64,000 bases of DNA from Neofusicoccum parvum (Eukaryota; Ascomycota; Dothideomycetes; Botryosphaeriales; Botryosphaeriaceae): assembly GCA_020912385.1 (NCBI GenBank), contig CP087221.1, positions 682,001-746,000 of the forward strand. The letters run 5' to 3'. Each line of letters opens with the position of its first letter. Position 1 is the first letter of the stretch. The notes under the pieces are model-generated. The model was not told where the DNA came from. It saw nothing but the letters and a program-made list of their open reading frames with translations, and ran no database searches. Positions 26,558-38,578 of the stretch are shown one piece after another. The position numbers were made by a program, and so were the translations under genes.

Positions 26558-27819
26558 TCAAATCGTCCATCCAATCTGCTCAGCTGGCCACCGTATCCAG
26601 GGCTTGTACTCTTCGGGAAGTAAGCGGCAGATTCCTGTCATTATATGGTCTGGCCAGTCCTCCATGAACCAGTAGCTACCAATGCCATGGATCATGACGA
26701 CAAAATACGATAAAATGACAAGGGCCAGCGGCTGATGTTGCTGAAGACAAAGGATAAAATCTTCCTCCAGGCAGTATATCCAGGAGAACACGAACATCGA
26801 CGAGTTCGATTGATCCCCGGCTTTCTTAGCCTCAAGTATTGGGTGAAGAGAACGGACCAGGCGGTCGAAAGCCCCAACGTAAGTTCCAGCGTTGGGCTCG
26901 GTGACAGCCGTGCTGACGAGAAATCGGCGGAAACTCTGTGTATGCTCATTGATCTCCGGGGCTTGGCCATCGCCGAAAGCAACTCGAAGCTTCCGGCCAG
27001 CTGTGCGGAACATGGCTGACAGCTTCCCGGACCAAAGGACGTCGCGTTGCGACTCGATGATGGCGCGCGTTCCTCGATTCAGGATAAGCCACTCAGACAC
27101 GCCTTGGTCGCTGATTATGAGGTAGTCTCCAGGTGTCGGACCTCTTGCGAATGACAAGGAACAGATTAGAACAGCAGAAATATAGAGTGAATCACAATTG
27201 TTGGCGTCGAGGTACGGAAGCATTGCTGTAACCCGCTGGATAGCTGCGTTGTGATATTCTTCTGCGACGTTCCGGAGGTATGCTTGCCGCTCGGGCTGAT
27301 GGCGGGCCAGGTGGAAGGCCGAAGTTGCGAATATCAGTTGAAGAACATAATGGTCGGCGAATCCTATCTGAGGTATGGTCGTTTGCCACATGGCGTGCAT
27401 CATGGGGCCTCCGCCTAGGGTATGGCTGGTTGAGGTGATGTAAGTCTGCAAAAGCTCGAGCTCTATAAGATTCAAGCTGGCGTCTGATAAAATACTGCTT
27501 GTCTGGGAAGCCGGAGATCCAATGGGAAGCGGAGTGACTGCAGAGGGGCTGAGGAGATAGCCGGGGCTCGGGGCGTTCGATGCGATAGGTGGAGATGCAG
27601 CGGCGAAGTCGCAGCGTATGGAGTGCCGGACACAGTTGGTACATGCCGGCTTTTCCTCATCACACTGCACGTCACAGGTCAGGCAGGGTGGCACGTGAAG
27701 CACAAGGGCGGGCATACCTTGATCCTCCGTTTCTTGCAGTTGGCGCAGCCCAGGCGGGATTTGCGATGTGTCCGCCTGGAAGCGGCGGCCTTCCGGGTGG
27801 GTTTTCGTGCGGCATCCAT
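26558..27819 (-). CDS. Zn2Cys6 transcription factor (Upc2/Ecm22-like architecture), paralog 1
   Basis: Exon 1 (27819-27718) encodes 34 aa ending in GCANCKKRRIK. Exon 2 (27664-26558) continues CDEEKPACTNCVRHSIRC, completing the six-cysteine binuclear zinc cluster. The 53-nt intron (27717-27665, GTATGC...GTGCAG) splits the cluster right before the third cysteine. The product is about 402 aa. A Ser/Pro linker follows, then a C-terminal regulatory domain (LNLIELELLQTYITSTS through PWIRWPAEQIGWTI). The N-terminal cluster plus this C-terminal layout is that of fungal Upc2/sterol-uptake-control-like regulators, inferred to act in the nucleus. It is a clear paralog of the product of 30822-32216, which shares the same intron position, RKSRLGCANCK motif and PWIRWP C-terminus. 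Target genes are unknown; the adjacent RTA1 gene is the obvious candidate. Confidence 0.87.
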
Positions 27820-29061
27820 GGCAGTTGCCCGCTGAAGCTTCGCTGGCTGAGAGGCGGACGGTGAAGGCGGATTGACAGCCGACGCACGGCAACGGGTGGA
27901 GGCGAAAGGGATACGGCGGCACCTGAGCGGCGGCGGCTGCGCTAAACCCGACGAGGCCGGCCGGCACCGAGGCCACAGCGCCAGCGCCGCCTGCAGCCAA
28001 GCCTGCACTCGAGGGGGAGCAATAGAATGCAGAGGCAGCACCGCCGTATTGTTGAGCTCGCCGTGCTTGGCAGGCCCGCAAAGCTTGAATCCACACGCTG
28101 GTCTTCAAGGCGGAGCGTCCGTGCAGTCGAGCTGTCCACAGCGGCTGCGAATCTGCAACAACTGCCGCAGATCACACTACATAAGCTTGCGTCCAGTCGT
28201 CGCAGACCTGCCGTCAGTGTGGCTGGCGTCGAGAACGAGCTTACGACGACGGCGAAGGTGTGACGCCGGGCGCAGGCAAAGCTGTGCAGCGCGTAGGGCT
28301 GAAAACGAACACGAACGAATACGGCGGCGCGGTACGCCAGCGTGGTCTGTGCCCGACGATCCCAGATAACAGAGAGGCTGGAACCACAGAACAACACCGC
28401 ACACGTTTTTCTGGTGGCGGAGGCTCGGCTGCTTGGCCTTTTCGTGCCAATTTCTCCGGCGCAATTGTGGGGGTGGCTCAAAAATGGGAGGTGCTCTCCA
28501 GATCTCTGTCTGTTAATAGAATGGCTGGTGCTGGCTGGCACAGCCCTGCGGGAAAGCGGCACGTTGGAATAGGTCAGTAGAGAGGATGTTTGGTGGCTTC
28601 GACTTCTGTCGCCAAGCTTTGCAGAGAAGCATTAAGGTAGAGAGAGGCCATGAGCTTGAACTCACGCCAGAAATTTCAGGCGCTTGCCTCTCTTCGGCCC
28701 AGCCCTTTGTGTCAGTAAAACCACGAGCAGCTTGATATCAACATTGCCCTAGAGTCACTACTACGTACGGTCTATTTTTGTGATCTGGAAGCAATGTCTG
28801 TTTCCAGGGGCAGGATTCCGTTGCTGCCTTAGCGCCCGCATGAATGTAGTCACGTGACGCGTATTCGTCTCGTACTCGTACGTGAGTATTCGCATGGCGC
28901 CAAATTCGAAGGCACCAGCAGTATAAACAAAGATGGGGCTCCTACAAGTGCCATTCTACTGCATCCACAGCTCTCTTCTTCTTCATCAACTTCCACAACC
29001 ACAGTCCCCATACGAACGTCGCCTCCACTTCCGCCTCGAAATTACCGATTGAATCTTCGAA
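27820..29061. other. Divergent promoter region: regulator 1 and RTA1 gene
   Basis: A 1.2-kb spacer between the minus-strand regulator and the plus-strand RTA1 gene; both promoters must lie here. Open frames on either strand have no recognisable motifs. The proximal RTA1 leader is CTTCTTC/CCA-rich (28970-29020). Confidence 0.5.
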
Positions 29062-30068
29062 ATGGCGTGCGACAACGTGGGCTACAAGCTCTATGAGTAC
29101 AAGCCCAGCGTGCCTGCGGCTGTCATCTTCGTCATTGCATTTGCCCTCACGACATCGTTCCATACCTTCCAGTTGATCAAGCACAAAACCTGGTACATGC
29201 TTGCGTTCCTCATCGGAGGTTTTTGTGAGTCGACCCTGCGCAAGGGGTGGAGGATCCACCAGGCTGACAAGTTCTACCCAAACAGTCGAAGTTGTCGGTT
29301 ACATCGGTCGTGCTGCCTCTGCTAGTCAAGATGAGTGCGAGTGGACGGTCGGCCCATATGTCATCCAGAGCGTCTTTCTCCTCGTCGCGCCAGCTCTCTT
29401 CGCAGCCTCAATCTACATGATCCTTGGACGCATCATTCTCCTCACCGACGGCGAGAGCCACTCGATCTTTAAGAAGCGCTGGCTCACAAAGTTCTTCGTG
29501 TTCGGAGACGTATTCTCCTTCCTGATGCAGTCTACTGGTAAGTGATCCCGGATGATAATACAAAGCGCGGCTAGCTGACTCTACTACAGGCGGTGGCCTC
29601 ATGGCCAAGGGCACCGATGACCCCGACTCGATCAAGATGGCGCAGAATATAATCATCGGCGGTCTGATCCTACAGCTCGTCTTCTTTGGCTTCTTCATCA
29701 TCGTCGCGGCCATCTTCCACAAGCGCATGAATGCCGTTCCCACGGTGAAATCCGAACAACCGGAGATTCGCTGGCGCCACTACCTGACCACACTCTACGT
29801 GGTCAGCATCCTCATCATGATCCGTTGCATCTTCCGAGCGATCGAGTACATCCAGGGCCATGACGGATACTTGCTCCAGAACGAGGTTTTCCTCTACATC
29901 TTTGATGCGCTTCTCATGTTCCTCGTTATGGCGTACATGAACTGGCAGCACCCCTCGGAGATCGGGCACCTCCTCCGCGGCGAGAGGCCCTCTGCCAGTG
30001 GCTTCACACTGGAGTCGGTAGACTCCAACAAGGAAGACCGTCTTCATGGTCCCCGTGAGATGGTTTGA
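29062..30068 (+). CDS. RTA1-family 7-TM protein (lipid/sterol stress)
   Basis: Exons 29062-29224, 29286-29537 and 29590-30068 join in phase to about 297 aa. The introns are GTGAGT...AACAG (61 nt) and GTAAGT...CTACAG (52 nt). The first junction restores GGFFEVVGYIGR, a hallmark of the RTA1 family. Seven hydrophobic segments are visible, including VPAAVIFVIAFALTT, WYMLAFLIGGFFEVVGYIG, VIQSVFLLVAPALFAASIY, GGLILQLVFFGFFIIVAAIF and FDALLMFLVMAYMN. RCIFRAIEYIQG is the conserved loop near TM6. Yeast relatives (Rta1, Rsb1, Pug1, Rta2) act at the plasma membrane or ER in resistance to aminocholesterol, sphingoid base release or azole stress. The exact role here is unknown. The gene sits between two paralogous Zn2Cys6 regulators. 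Confidence 0.92.
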
Positions 30069-30821
30069 TCGGATGTGATGATCCGGGGGGAATCAAAACA
30101 GGATAGAGGTTTTTTTTTTCAGTAGACATGACTTGCGAAAGCCCACGATGGCGGTGGCGGGCAACGACTTTGGGTTCTGGGCGCTGGTTTTTGAGCTTGC
30201 TTCTCTTTTTTATTCGTGTGTCGGGCGTTCGTTCATACAAGCGCGCGTGGGCAGCAGCACCCCGGGAAGATGCTGGAATGAGGGGCCACCTTAACGAAAG
30301 GGGATGGAAATTGGCTAGAACGGGATAGATACACCCACAGCAGTCAGAAAGAGTAATTATCAGAGTCCGAACGTTTTGGCCAGCACAGGAAGGCTTCGTG
30401 AGAGCGGATCGTCAGTGCCGTGGACGGCCCCACCTGCGCGGAGCAGCCGAAGAGATGTGCGCGTACGTGTAGATAGACTCAGGCCCAGGCGGCCGCTTGC
30501 AGCAGAGACGCTCGTGGTGGTATCAGACCCGACGCGTTTCAGTCTCGTGTGCGGACCAATCCGGAGAGGTGAAACGCGAAAGTGGTGGCCGCGGGGAAGC
30601 TGCGCCACGGCGTTATCCCGGCGCACCAGGCAAGCGGGCCCGAGCTTCCGCGCCTGCACGCTGCGCCTCCTCGCTCACTGGCTACAAGACCCGTCAACCC
30701 CTCTGCGTCGACCTCGCCCTGAGCGTGCTGCCTCTACACAACCCCCTCTGGACGCAGCCCAATCAATGACCGCTGAGTCTTGACTCACGCACCTCCAGGC
30801 CAGCCCTGGGGCCATGTGACT
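30069..30821. other. Intergenic region between RTA1 gene and regulator 2
   Basis: About 750 bp with a T-rich stretch (30110-30120) just downstream of the RTA1 stop, then GC-rich promoter sequence for regulator 2. No gene seen. Confidence 0.5.
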
Positions 30822-32216
30822 ATGCCCGAGCAGCAGCCGGCGCAGAAGAGCCTTGGGCCCATTGCGTCGCGGCGATCCCACCGCAAATCCCGACTGGGTT
30901 GTGCCAACTGCAAGCGCCGCAGAATCAAGGTGAGTGCTGCCTGCGGGTTGAACAGGTTGGCAAACTCCAGCCTTGCTCTCTTCGCCCACCTCAGTCTCTG
31001 CCACCTATGCTACCGAAACCGAGATCCTGATGAAACCGCGCAGTGCGATGAGAAAAGGCCCGAGTGCACACAGTGTGTCAGACACTCCATCCACTGTGAC
31101 TTTATATCCGCCGCCAGCTCTCAATCGGCAACGTCCAGTCCAGCAGACCATCTAAGCCCTTCAGATGCTCTGCTGGCGGGGGCGAGGACCCCATCGGGCC
31201 CAGGCGGGGTTCCCAGCCCATTCACTGACTTTTCCGCCACTACTCCAAACGAGTTCAACTCTCCTCCGGCCACAGTAGCCCAGCCTGCTGCCGTCTCAAA
31301 CATCTCCGACCTGGAGCTCCTGCACAACTACTCCACCTCAACAGCCTACACCATCACAATCGTGCCCGAAATGCAAACCTTTTATCGGGTCAATGTACCC
31401 CAGATCGGCTTCTCCTATCCCTTCCTTTTGCATGCCCTTATGGCTTTATCCGCGCGCCACCTCGCCCACTTCAGGGAGAATCGCCGGGCCTCATACATTG
31501 CCAAAGCCGACAGCCACTGGGAGGTAGCGTTGCGCACAGCCTCCGCCCTCCTCCCCACTGTCAACAACGAAAACGGACCAGCACTCTACATGTTCGCCGT
31601 CATCTCCTGCTTCTACACGCTCGGCAAAGGCCCCAGGGAGCGCGACTTCCTCATCTTCAGCGACCACGGCCTCGCCGAATGGCTGGTCCTCTTCCGCGGC
31701 GTGCGCGCCATCATGGAGACCTCCAGGGACGCCATCCGCGACGGCGCGCTCTCGCCGCTCTTCACCATCGCGACGGCGCGCCTCCAGCGCTTCCACAACC
31801 ACGACATCGAGGCCGACGAGCACCCGCACATCCAGGAGCTGCGCCAGCTGGCGCTCGAGCTCATGGCCGACAACCCCAACCTGCCCACCTACATCGCCGC
31901 CATCGACGACATCTCGCGCTCCTACGCCGCCGTCTTCGGCCCCGACGGCACCGGCATGGCCGGCTACTCGCAGAACATCTTCATCTGGCTCTACCGCGTC
32001 TCCGACGACTTCGTCCTCTGCCTCCAGCAGAAGCAGCCCATGGCCCTCACCGTCTTCGCCCACTTCGTCGTCCTCATGAACGAGATGGGCTCGCACTGGT
32101 GGATGAAGGGCTGGGTCTACCACCTGCTCTCCGGCATCCACGACGCCCTGGACGAGGGCAGCAGGCCGTGGATCAGGTGGCCCATGGAGAAGCTGGGGTG
32201 GATCCCTGACGTGTGA
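30822..32216 (+). CDS. Zn2Cys6 transcription factor (Upc2/Ecm22-like architecture), paralog 2
   Basis: Exon 1 (30822-30929) encodes 36 aa ending GCANCKRRRIK; exon 2 (31044-32216) starts CDEKRPECTQCVRHSIHC, for about 426 aa. The intron (30930-31043, GTGAGT...GCGCAG) sits at exactly the same codon as in the paralog at 26558-27819. It is 114 nt, a multiple of three with no in-frame stop, so retained transcripts would keep the frame and insert 38 residues into the zinc cluster. After a Ser/Pro linker the C-terminal domain runs from SDLELLHNYSTSTAYT to PWIRWPMEKLGWIPDV. Upstream ATGs in frame are absent; MPEQQPAQK is the first good start. It is probably a regulator of sterol/lipid stress genes; that is inference from family and neighbours. 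Confidence 0.88.
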   Translation: MPEQQPAQKSLGPIASRRSHRKSRLGCANCKRRRIKVSAACGLNRLANSSLALFAHLSLCHLCYRNRDPDETAQCDEKRPECTQCVRHSIHCDFISAASSQSATSSPADHLSPSDALLAGARTPSGPGGVPSPFTDFSATTPNEFNSPPATVAQPAAVSNISDLELLHNYSTSTAYTITIVPEMQTFYRVNVPQIGFSYPFLLHALMALSARHLAHFRENRRASYIAKADSHWEVALRTASALLPTVNNENGPALYMFAVISCFYTLGKGPRERDFLIFSDHGLAEWLVLFRGVRAIMETSRDAIRDGALSPLFTIATARLQRFHNHDIEADEHPHIQELRQLALELMADNPNLPTYIAAIDDISRSYAAVFGPDGTGMAGYSQNIFIWLYRVSDDFVLCLQQKQPMALTVFAHFVVLMNEMGSHWWMKGWVYHLLSGIHDALDEGSRPWIRWPMEKLGWIPDV

Positions 32217-37033: not shown

Positions 37034-38578
37034 TCATGAGTAGTAAGGGGAGATCCAATCGAATGGGTCCATCTTGTCGGCGTCATTGGCGATCTCCATC
37101 CCGGTGTTTTCTGAAATTCTTCCGATTGAGGCGTCTTTCTTGTGGAGCGTAGTTGTGGGCAGAGCTGGCTTAGATATGATTGAGGGGCCTGAGCTTATGT
37201 GGGGATGGGAATTCTGGCGACTTCCATCACCATTAGGCTGGATGATGGACTGTATGGTGGAAGTCTTAGATGCGGGCGAAAGTGTGAACCAAGTCATGGC
37301 ATCAGGATTGAAGGGCAACTCACCTTGAGGTGGAGTCGCGTCTTGCACCTTGAAAGTAAGCCTTGCCTGTTTAAGACCTCGGGTGTCTTCTTTGTCTGAG
37401 GCTTTTCCCTTATTCCTTTTCCTCTTTGAAGGAAAGCTAAGGAGTGCGCTAACTGGCCTGCGACTCGCAGAAATGGTAATGCCATGTGGGCATCCTACTA
37501 GCCGGCTTTGGTAGAATTTTTGTGCTGGTTTGGATTTTGTATCAAGGACTTTGATCGGCAGCGGTTTGCCGTGCTCGTCGCGAAGGAGACACCGAGGCGC
37601 ATGCTTGCACGCATGGTAGGGTCGTTTACGGCTGTGGCACTGTTTCCTGTCCCAGTTGATCCTACCAGGCTCCATAGTGTGGTGACTGGGACGGATGCAG
37701 CGCCAATTCCCACACAGGTGCGACAAATGCCAGCTCTCGTATATCCAGCCGTACTTTTGCTCTTCTGTCATCGAACTTTTGACGACCATCCAAAGTGTTC
37801 CCACTTGACCACCGAGAGACCGTATTTTCTTGCTTCCGGAACATTTTTGATCTTTGAAGCTGAAGTACTTTTGAACCTTTTCTCCCTTCGCCCTTGCCTC
37901 GGGCCCTCTGTATATCCAGCAACGGTCATCATCTCCATCATCATGGATGGCCTGTGCAAACATGTGCTCCAGCATGAGTTCTCCTCTCTTTCTGTCCTCA
38001 GCGGACATGTTCCAGCTGCTCTCCTTGGCGAGAATGAGGTCAATTTTCGTATTTTAAGCGTTCGACTGTTTATTGCCTGTGTCTTTGAAAATGTCCTGCG
38101 AATCAGGTTGATCTGAATCTAGTGTGCCGAGAGCCGGCTCTTCTGGGTCCTCAAAGAACATGCCTTTATCAGTTTGTGGAGAGCTATCATTTCCTTGGCT
38201 CTCACATTGCGGACCCCGCTCTTGCGGTCCTGCTATCCCTGACTCTGTAAGTGCTCCGCATTCCAGGCAATCATCCTTGGATACCGCTGAAGAAGCTGAT
38301 GACTGTATCTCTTGAGAGCTAGACAATTCTCTAGAAGAATGAGAAGACTGTGATGAAGAAGTCTGGCTGCTTACTTGTGCCTCTTGACTTAGCGAATAGG
38401 ACGTTGCTGGATACTGAAGACCTTGCTCATTCTGATCCTGTCTAGCATCCCCATAGTGGCGGTCGAGAAAGCGCACTTCGTCCTCAAAAGTGTTGATCTC
38501 CGAGTCGGTTCGGTACATGCCAGTAGTAGTTCGTCGTTCACTCAGCGAGCCGAGAGATGTTCTGGCATTACTCATCAT
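37034..38578 (-). CDS. Protein with His-Me/HNH-like zinc-binding loop
   Basis: Exons 38578-38067 and 38015-37034 give about 497 aa. The 51-nt intron uses donor GTCGAA, which is weak, but phase and the loss of a stop support it. The N-terminal third is Ser/Gln/Glu-rich and disordered. The ordered core has C272-G-N-W-R-C277, H282/H283, N291 and C297, followed by C307-x-H309-x3-C313. This is the cysteine/histidine/asparagine pattern of the zinc-binding loop of His-Me finger (I-PpoI-like) homing endonucleases (Pfam zf-His_Me_endon). The C-terminus is basic then acidic. In fungi such domains are found in stand-alone nuclear genes of unknown role. Whether it is a nuclease or only a DNA-binding protein cannot be judged from sequence alone. 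Confidence 0.75.

What the first reader, a model, noticed from the sequence alone, without database searches (positions are those of the whole stretch)
26558..32216. RTA1 gene flanked by two paralogous Zn2Cys6 regulators
Two Upc2-like paralogs (same intron position, same zinc cluster and C-terminus) sit on either side of a single RTA1-family gene. RTA1 relatives act in sterol/azole/sphingoid stress and Upc2-type factors control sterol genes, so this may be a self-contained membrane-stress module with duplicated regulators, perhaps activator and antagonist.
Basis: partly seen in the sequence, partly recalled or inferred. Interest (0 to 1): 0.75.

Follow-up and report, generated by a model that had tools for sequence, protein, structure and literature searches.

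The report
Upc2-like regulators paired with RTA1 genes
A fungal membrane-protein gene sits between two relatives of the yeast sterol sensor Upc2, and the same partnership recurs in this genome and in other moulds, along with a shared DNA word in front of many of the membrane genes, which suggests a repeated sensor-plus-exporter unit whose wiring can now be tested.

Summary
The triplet is real. TF-A (26558-27819, -) and TF-C (30822-32216, +) are Zn2Cys6/Fungal_trans_2 proteins, 39% identical; RTA1 (29062-30068, +) lies between them. The best solved relative of their family profile is the Upc2 ligand-binding domain (E 9.7e-30).

The locus is one case of a genome-wide pattern. Of 32 listed family TFs, 14 lie within 4 kb of an RTA1 gene (0.21 expected), and a second TF-RTA1-TF triplet exists. 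Of other zinc-cluster hits examined, 0 of 150 and 0 of 80 do. Partners' distances correlate (10 pairs, p 0.0015). A and C belong to different family branches, so they are not a local duplicate. The shared intron is family-wide (26 of 27).

CGTATTCG stands before 11 of 22 RTA1 genes read but only 1 of 7 held back. Both sites in the 64-kb window lie between TF-A and RTA1.

Ten annotated proteins of other fungi join RTA1 to a family TF, so the genes are neighbours there.

Likeliest: cognate lipid- or sterol-responsive regulator-exporter cassettes. Activator/antagonist is unsupported. There are no binding or expression data.

The parts
26558..27819 (-). TF-A: Zn2Cys6 / Fungal_trans_2 (Upc2-like) regulator, 402 aa, exons 27819-27718 and 27664-26558; divergent from RTA1
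   Evidence: spliced model, found again with TF-C as guide; Pfam; N-terminus aligns from residue 1 with Diplodia corticola P0028 (58%)
29062..30068 (+). RTA1-family membrane protein, 297 aa, exons 29062-29224, 29286-29537, 29590-30068
   Evidence: PF04479 E 7.1e-70
30822..32216 (+). TF-C: Zn2Cys6 / Fungal_trans_2 (Upc2-like) regulator, 426 aa, exons 30822-30929 and 31044-32216; tandem downstream of RTA1
   Evidence: found again with TF-A as guide; Pfam; Macrophomina relative P0001 67% over the whole query
28860..28867 (+). CGTATTCG site, 202 bp before the RTA1 start codon; candidate regulatory element
28316..28323 (-). second CGTATTCG site (CGAATACG on +), 745 bp before RTA1 and about 500 bp before TF-A
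   Evidence: with the one above, the only exact sites in the 64-kb window
27820..29061 (.). region between TF-A and RTA1 (1242 bp) that holds both sites
27665..27717 (-). TF-A intron, phase 0, inside the zinc-cluster coding sequence
   Evidence: same place in 26 of 27 family models
30930..31043 (+). TF-C intron, phase 0, same place

Best explanation
The locus is one copy of a repeated cassette: an Upc2-type zinc-cluster regulator beside an RTA1-type membrane protein. SHOWN by sequence: recurrent adjacency, correlated divergence of TF and RTA1 partners, an Upc2-like ligand-binding domain, and an enriched word CGTATTCG before 11 of 22 RTA1 genes read and 1 of 7 held back, mostly 179-336 bp before the start codon. 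INFERRED: the regulator's C-terminal domain binds a sterol or other lipid/amphiphile as Upc2 does; a change in that ligand (sterol depletion, azole-type or amphiphile stress) activates it; it binds CGTATTCG-type sites and switches on RTA1, which moves or shields the membrane lipid or amphiphile. Here TF-C is probably the older partner (loci on C14 and C15 have the same RTA1-then-TF order with TFs near TF-C), and TF-A is a second input from a sister branch that shares the divergent region. With nearly the same zinc-cluster recognition segment, A and C probably read similar sites, together or in competition.
For: 14 of 32 family TFs within 4 kb of an RTA1 gene, 0.21 expected, at most 3 in 20,000 random placements, none at 4-20 kb. 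Controls within 4 kb: 0 of 150 scored Zn_clus hits (356 candidates) and 0 of 80 non-family Fungal_trans_2 hits. TF-RTA1 distance correlation over 10 pairs r 0.43, p 0.0015; {p8,p12,p16a} is a group in both trees. Upc2 LBD best solved relative. CGTATTCG in 11 of 20 promoters (last 600 bp), 0.46 expected, best of 9132 8-mers; 15 sites in 19.9 kb of RTA1 promoters against 0.47 expected, and 5 in 176.9 kb of other held sequence against 4.17. Four places in the genome have two sites within 30 bp; 3 stand before an RTA1 gene or a family TF. Ten of 11 candidate proteins of other fungi match both the RTA1 set and the family TF set of this genome (TF part E 2e-77 to 7e-14). Papers, passages read: RTA1 genes among the most azole-induced genes of A. 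fumigatus (PMC10455693, PMC6327609); Upc2 motif noted for the S. cerevisiae RTA1 promoter (PMC9697666); CGTA is the core common to C. glabrata and S. cerevisiae Upc2 sites (PMC8509923).
Against: No expression, binding or ligand data. The exact word is absent from 11 of 22 read RTA1 promoters (9 lack even CGTATTC) and from 6 of 7 held back. It stands before unpaired RTA1 genes too (4 of 9 read, 1 of 7 held back; paired 7 of 13), so adjacency and word are not tightly coupled. TF-C's own upstream region has none. TCGTATA (the yeast site, recalled) is in 1 of 22 promoters. 18 of 32 family TFs have no RTA1 neighbour. In C. glabrata, RTA1 was induced more by fluconazole without Upc2A (PMC8509923 passage). 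Which factor binds CGTATTCG is unknown.
Confidence: 0.6

Rival explanations
1. The pairing is inherited linkage only: an ancestral TF-RTA1 neighbourhood was copied by segmental duplication, and the TFs now regulate other genes; CGTATTCG is the site of an unrelated stress factor.
For: 18 of 32 TFs are unpaired; the word also marks unpaired RTA1 genes and is absent from several paired ones; correlated trees follow from co-duplication alone. A TF relic beside an RTA1 gene on C4 shows that RTA1 can outlive its partner.
Against: The TFs of different pairs are only 23-49% identical, so the linkage is old; the same partnership is seen in species of three classes (class names recalled); one of the four genome-wide double sites stands before an unpaired family TF.
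Confidence: 0.25
2. Local duplication: one TF beside RTA1 was copied to the other side recently, giving activator and antagonist.
For: Two paralogues flank one gene, same intron and domains.
Against: A and C are not sisters: A groups with C1:4128787 (100/100), C with C14 and C6 genes (96/95). Identities: A to C1 52%; C to C15, C10, C1 and C14 genes 42-43%; A to C 40%. The intron is family-wide. Both zinc clusters are intact.
Confidence: 0.04
3. The triplet is part of a larger detoxification or metabolite cluster in which RTA1 and the TFs are accessories.
For: Fungal clusters often hold a TF and a transporter (general knowledge). A table of a Fusarium graminearum gene set ends with two RTA1 genes and a C6 TF in consecutive rows (PMC4022177 passage).
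Against: Ten window ORFs chosen by length gave an epimerase-type protein, a weak PFU hit below its cut-off, an aspartyl protease, ankyrin repeats, a zf-His_Me_endon hit, a P450, and nothing for 4 of 10; I see no pathway. This was not a full annotation, and I did not search for a third gene common to the pairs.
Confidence: 0.08

Closest known systems
Upc2/Ecm22 zinc-cluster sterol regulators (S. cerevisiae, Candida)
   Same: N-terminal Zn2Cys6 cluster and a C-terminal domain homologous to the solved Upc2 LBD over most of its length.
   Different: Many paralogues in one genome; PMC3894159 (abstract and passages) and PMC5412356 (passages) hold Upc2 to be restricted to Saccharomycotina; TCGTATA (recalled) is in 1 of 22 RTA1 promoters; ligand unknown.
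RTA1 / lipid-translocating exporter family (PF04479)
   Same: PF04479 match over positions 1-203 of 208.
   Different: 29 genes in this genome (merged), 13 of them within 4 kb of a family TF. I saw no such pairing described in the listings.
Bacterial one-component regulator beside its efflux gene (TetR type, recalled)
   Same: Proposed logic: a ligand-binding regulator next to the exporter, often divergent.
   Different: Unrelated proteins, eukaryotic; gene order varies: 7 divergent, 4 tandem with RTA1 first, 1 tandem with TF first, 2 convergent.
Upc2/Pdr1 control of RTA1 and RSB1 in yeasts
   Same: An Upc2 motif is noted for the S. cerevisiae RTA1 promoter (PMC9697666 passage).
   Different: In C. 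glabrata RTA1 was induced more by fluconazole without Upc2A, while RSB1 fell further (PMC8509923 passage). Neighbourhood of those genes was not examined here.

Membership tests
Upc2-type sterol regulators | N-terminal Zn2Cys6 cluster | tested here: met
   PF00172 E 2.2e-9 (TF-A) and 9e-10 (TF-C)
Upc2-type sterol regulators | C-terminal domain homologous to the solved Upc2 LBD | tested here: met
   TF-C vs 7vpu E 3.3e-10; 7-sequence profile vs 7vpu E 9.7e-30, profile positions 91-390 of 416
Upc2-type sterol regulators | Binds ergosterol; moves to the nucleus on sterol loss | not testable with these tools
   no ligand data; structure prediction not accepted
Upc2-type sterol regulators | Orthology to yeast Upc2 | not tested
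   no tree with yeast Upc2 was built; PMC3894159 finds no clear orthologue outside Saccharomycotina
Upc2-type sterol regulators | Target promoters with a CGTA-core sterol response element | tested here: inconclusive
   CGTATTCG holds CGTA and is enriched, but TCGTATA is in 1 of 22 promoters and the binder is unknown
RTA1 / lipid-translocating exporter family | PF04479 domain | tested here: met
   E 7.1e-70, positions 1-203 of 208
RTA1 / lipid-translocating exporter family | Seven transmembrane helices | tested here: inconclusive
   a simple hydropathy scan gave 6 stretches, two of them overlapping
RTA1 / lipid-translocating exporter family | Lipid export or amphiphile resistance activity | not testable with these tools
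   none
Cognate TF-RTA1 cassette (as proposed here) | TF and RTA1 are neighbours more often than chance | tested here: met
   14 of 32 vs 0.21 expected; controls 0 of 150 and 0 of 80
Cognate TF-RTA1 cassette (as proposed here) | Partners diverge together | tested here: met
   r 0.43, p 0.0015, 10 pairs; not all partners match in the trees, e.g. p6a
Cognate TF-RTA1 cassette (as proposed here) | TF controls its neighbour | not testable with these tools
   no expression or ChIP data

The most novel reading that the evidence does not exclude
Moulds carry a family of Upc2-related receptor-type regulators, many paired with their own RTA1 exporter and tuned to different lipids or amphiphiles: a eukaryotic counterpart of bacterial regulator-efflux pairs, spread by co-duplication, with a CGTATTCG-type operator in part of the family and other sites in branches such as p9/p10. 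The locus here is a two-input version.
Probability: 0.35. Interest if true: 0.8.

Novelty: new variant of a known kind. Interest (0 to 1): 0.6.

Why it matters
RTA1-family genes are numerous here (29) and, in A. fumigatus, are among the most azole-induced genes, while their role is said not to be established (PMC6327609, PMC10455693, passages). Upc2 is described as restricted to Saccharomycotina (PMC3894159, PMC5412356, passages). A recurrent Upc2-like TF-RTA1 partnership with a defined promoter word gives a concrete regulator, target and candidate binding site to test, and a way to assign ligands to members of one family through partners in the other.

Tried and rejected
Recent local duplication of the TFs: rejected by tree and identities. 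Shared intron as a sign of duplication: rejected, family-wide. Activator/antagonist: no supporting feature seen. Word explained by plain promoter composition: rejected. TCGTATA (recalled): 1 of 22 promoters. Held-back test on 7 RTA1 promoters: weak, 1 of 7 promoters with 2 sites against 0.09 expected. The fourth double site (C4:330886) is not before an RTA1 gene or a listed family TF; it lies some 400 bases from a small ORF and about 1.6 kb before a less related zinc-cluster ORF. Full TF beside the RTA1 gene on C4: not found, only a 55-residue relic (score 97; highest of 20 shuffled queries 49), not counted among the 14. Structure prediction: not accepted. Paper searches for a described TF-RTA1 pair: 1 of 1 listed; 25 of 136; 8 of 8; 12 of 12; 0; 17 of 17; 1 of 1; 15 of 204; none seen described as such. 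One search (the word itself) listed 10 of 48 papers, none evidently about this element.

Limits: the 32 TFs came from queries that are themselves RTA1 neighbours, which may favour paired branches; three entries are fragments or weak (C5:289285, C5:3149640, C2:3568229). In the controls distance was taken from the start of the hit, in the family test from gene ends. The lengths of C7 and C13 were not known separately and were halved. Trees used 27 of 32 TFs and 22 of 29 RTA1 genes; the TF at C9:2336347 was not modelled. Names such as p8 or p12 are my labels for pairs. Shared contigs in other species rest on equal contig lengths, not on reading them.
Full report
WHAT IS THERE. The window is G000:C16:682001-746000 of a 44-Mb fungal genome in 18 contigs. 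The species is very probably Neofusicoccum parvum: a 258-aa N. parvum record is 99% identical to TF-C over 61% of it (lineage Dothideomycetes, Botryosphaeriaceae). Three genes are confirmed: TF-A (minus, 26558-27819), RTA1 (plus, 29062-30068), TF-C (plus, 30822-32216). Pfam gives Zn_clus plus Fungal_trans_2 for both TFs and RTA1 for the middle gene.

UPC2 LIKENESS. TF-C alone matches the solved Upc2 ligand-binding domain over its first part (7vpu, query 120-229, E 3.3e-10). A profile of seven family members matches it over positions 91-390 of 416 (E 9.7e-30; three more Upc2 entries 5e-26 to 1.3e-25). No solved relative of the RTA1 protein was found by sequence up to E 10. Orthology to yeast Upc2 was not tested, and PMC3894159 (abstract and passages) reports no clear orthologue outside Saccharomycotina.

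A GENOME-WIDE PATTERN. The RTA1 family has 46 exon hits, which I merge to 29 genes. I list 32 TF genes of the A/C family. Fourteen of the 32 lie within 4 kb of an RTA1 gene, ten within 1 kb, none between 4 and 20 kb; random placement gives 0.21 on average and at most 3 in 20,000 trials. They make 12 loci with 13 RTA1 genes, counting both at C14. Arrangement: 7 divergent, 4 tandem with RTA1 first, 1 tandem with TF first, 2 convergent. A second TF-RTA1-TF triplet is at C8:1453420-1461250. Controls: of the 150 Zn_clus hits scored among 356 candidates, none fell in a listed family gene and none was within 4 kb (1 within 6 kb); of 97 Fungal_trans_2 hits, 17 fell in listed family genes, 7 of them near an RTA1 gene, and of the other 80 none was within 4 kb (2 within 10 kb). 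Query bias toward paired branches is possible, but the 0 of 80 limits it. On C4 a short TF relic stands divergently 189 bp before an RTA1 gene; it was not counted.

CO-DIVERGENCE. Maximum-likelihood trees of 27 TFs and 22 RTA1 genes share the group p8, p12, p16a (TF 100/99; RTA1 98/95). TFs p3 and p10 are sisters (94/85); their RTA1 partners lie in one group of six that also holds p9 and unpaired genes (93/96). The p6a and p14 partners do not match neatly, and several branches are long or weak. Over 10 pairs outside the window the pairwise distances correlate (r 0.43, p 0.0015; adding TF-C p 0.0026, adding TF-A p 0.0038). RTA1 of the window is closest to p15 (62%) and C8:2092036 (61%). p15 and p14 have the order RTA1-then-TF with TFs in the same group of five as TF-C (91/85), so I infer that TF-C is the older partner. 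TF-A's nearest relative is an unpaired gene (52%); its relative p6a is divergent from an RTA1 gene, as TF-A is.

THE SHARED INTRON. 26 of 27 modelled family TFs have a phase-0 intron just before the third cysteine of the zinc cluster (models were guided by A or C, so some bias is possible). It is a family trait.

PROMOTER WORD. In the last 600 bp before 20 RTA1 genes, CGTATTCG is the top 8-mer: 11 of 20 against 0.46 expected from a second-order Markov model, among 9132 words (the two distant C17 genes were left out there and have none). Over all 22 promoters, 11 carry 15 exact sites, 14 of them between -179 and -336 and one at -745. Two further promoters, p3 and p16a, have CGTATTCT. In the last 450 bp no single-letter variant occurs in more than 3 of 20, and 400 permuted words average 0.20 with a maximum of 4. 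The genome holds 1038 sites, one per 42 kb; the pattern read backwards has 835. In the sequence held, RTA1 promoters have 15 sites in 19.9 kb against 0.47 expected, family TF promoters not shared with RTA1 have 3 in 21.8 kb against 0.51, and all other sequence 5 in 176.9 kb against 4.17. A held-back set of 7 RTA1 promoters (521-541 bp each, start codons estimated) gave sites in only 1 of 7, two sites against 0.09 expected: weak support, and a sign that the element belongs to part of the family. Two sites within 30 bp of each other occur at four places in the genome: direct, C14:62063, before RTA1 (reversed-pattern control 2); inverted, C10:1119676, before an unpaired family TF, and C15:45107, before RTA1 (control 0); everted, C4:330886, by a small unrelated ORF (control 0). 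So 3 of 4 stand at RTA1 or family TF genes (chance about 1e-8; C14 and C15 were in the discovery set, C10 was not). In the window the only two exact sites lie between TF-A and RTA1.

OTHER FUNGI. A query of RTA1 followed by TF-C returned 39 proteins; I read 11 of them that looked joined. Ten of the 11 match both the RTA1 genes and the family TFs of this genome in separate stretches (TF part E 2e-77 to 7e-14); P0119 does not. By Pfam (10 of the 11 scanned), P0107, P0108, P0109, P0111 and P0121 have RTA1 and a TF domain above cut-off; P0110, P0112 and P0116 have the TF domain below cut-off; P0113 and P0119 show RTA1 only. RTA1 comes first in Penicillium (2), Rhinocladiella, Trichoderma, Lecanicillium, Colletotrichum and Aspergillus; the TF comes first in Stemphylium and Fusarium (2). 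In P0107, P0108, P0110 and P0112 the TF part begins at the exon-2 start (CDE), so the likeliest reading is that gene finders joined two neighbours and skipped TF exon 1; a true fused protein or read-through transcript is not excluded. Either way the genes are adjacent in those species. For the triplet, five A-like proteins have at least 55% identity, and three of them share a longest-contig length with a C-like protein: P0028 and P0007, Diplodia corticola, 454,120 bases; P0132 and P0005, 8,221 bases; P0135 and P0104 (the first exon of a C-like gene), 21,158 bases. P0133 (8,399) and Macrophomina P0134 (294,299; C-like P0001 on 196,332) do not. Equal lengths make one contig likely but were not checked by reading it, and RTA1 between the two was not seen.

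LITERATURE. Read as passages: RTA1 genes strongly azole-induced in A. fumigatus (PMC10455693; PMC6327609); Upc2 sites share CGTA, and C. glabrata RTA1 was induced more without Upc2A (PMC8509923), which is against a simple activator role in that yeast; Upc2 motif noted for the S. cerevisiae RTA1 promoter (PMC9697666); two RTA1 genes and a C6 TF in consecutive rows of an F. graminearum table, without comment in the passage (PMC4022177). I saw no description of a TF-RTA1 pairing (listings; two of them capped).

MECHANISM AND VERDICT. Shown: the triplet, recurrent pairing, co-divergence, Upc2-like domain, enriched promoter word. Inferred: lipid or sterol sensing, binding of CGTATTCG by these TFs, control of RTA1, export function. 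I put the cassette model at 0.6. The activator/antagonist idea has no support here. Interest 0.6: the single locus is ordinary in its parts, but the genome-wide pairing and the promoter word make a poorly understood family directly testable.

Noticed in passing
N. parvum records P0003 and P0092: Two TFs of this family (P0003 is TF-C; P0092 resembles the C15 TF by eye) carry the public name 'Rta1 domain protein', a mislabel that may come from joined gene models.
   Followed up: partly
P0107, P0108, P0110, P0112: Annotated proteins of three genera that join RTA1 to a TF lacking the first zinc-cluster exon; artefact or read-through transcript not decided.
   Followed up: partly
G000:C4:3318025-3318189 (L078, L088): Relic of a family TF divergently upstream of an RTA1 gene.
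   Followed up: yes
G000:C4:330886-330905 (L087): The only everted CGTATTCG pair within 30 bp found in the genome, near a small ORF that looks secreted by eye.
   Followed up: partly
window 37037-38053 (-): ORF with a zf-His_Me_endon (homing-endonuclease zinc loop) match, E 6.1e-13.
   Followed up: no
G000:C14:56772-61747: Two diverged RTA1 genes and one TF in tandem on one strand; an F. graminearum table lists a similar row (PMC4022177).
   Followed up: partly
P0122: A Fusarium agapanthi protein model joins TF-like, RTA1 and CHAT-domain parts in 1042 aa; probably a merged gene model.
   Followed up: partly
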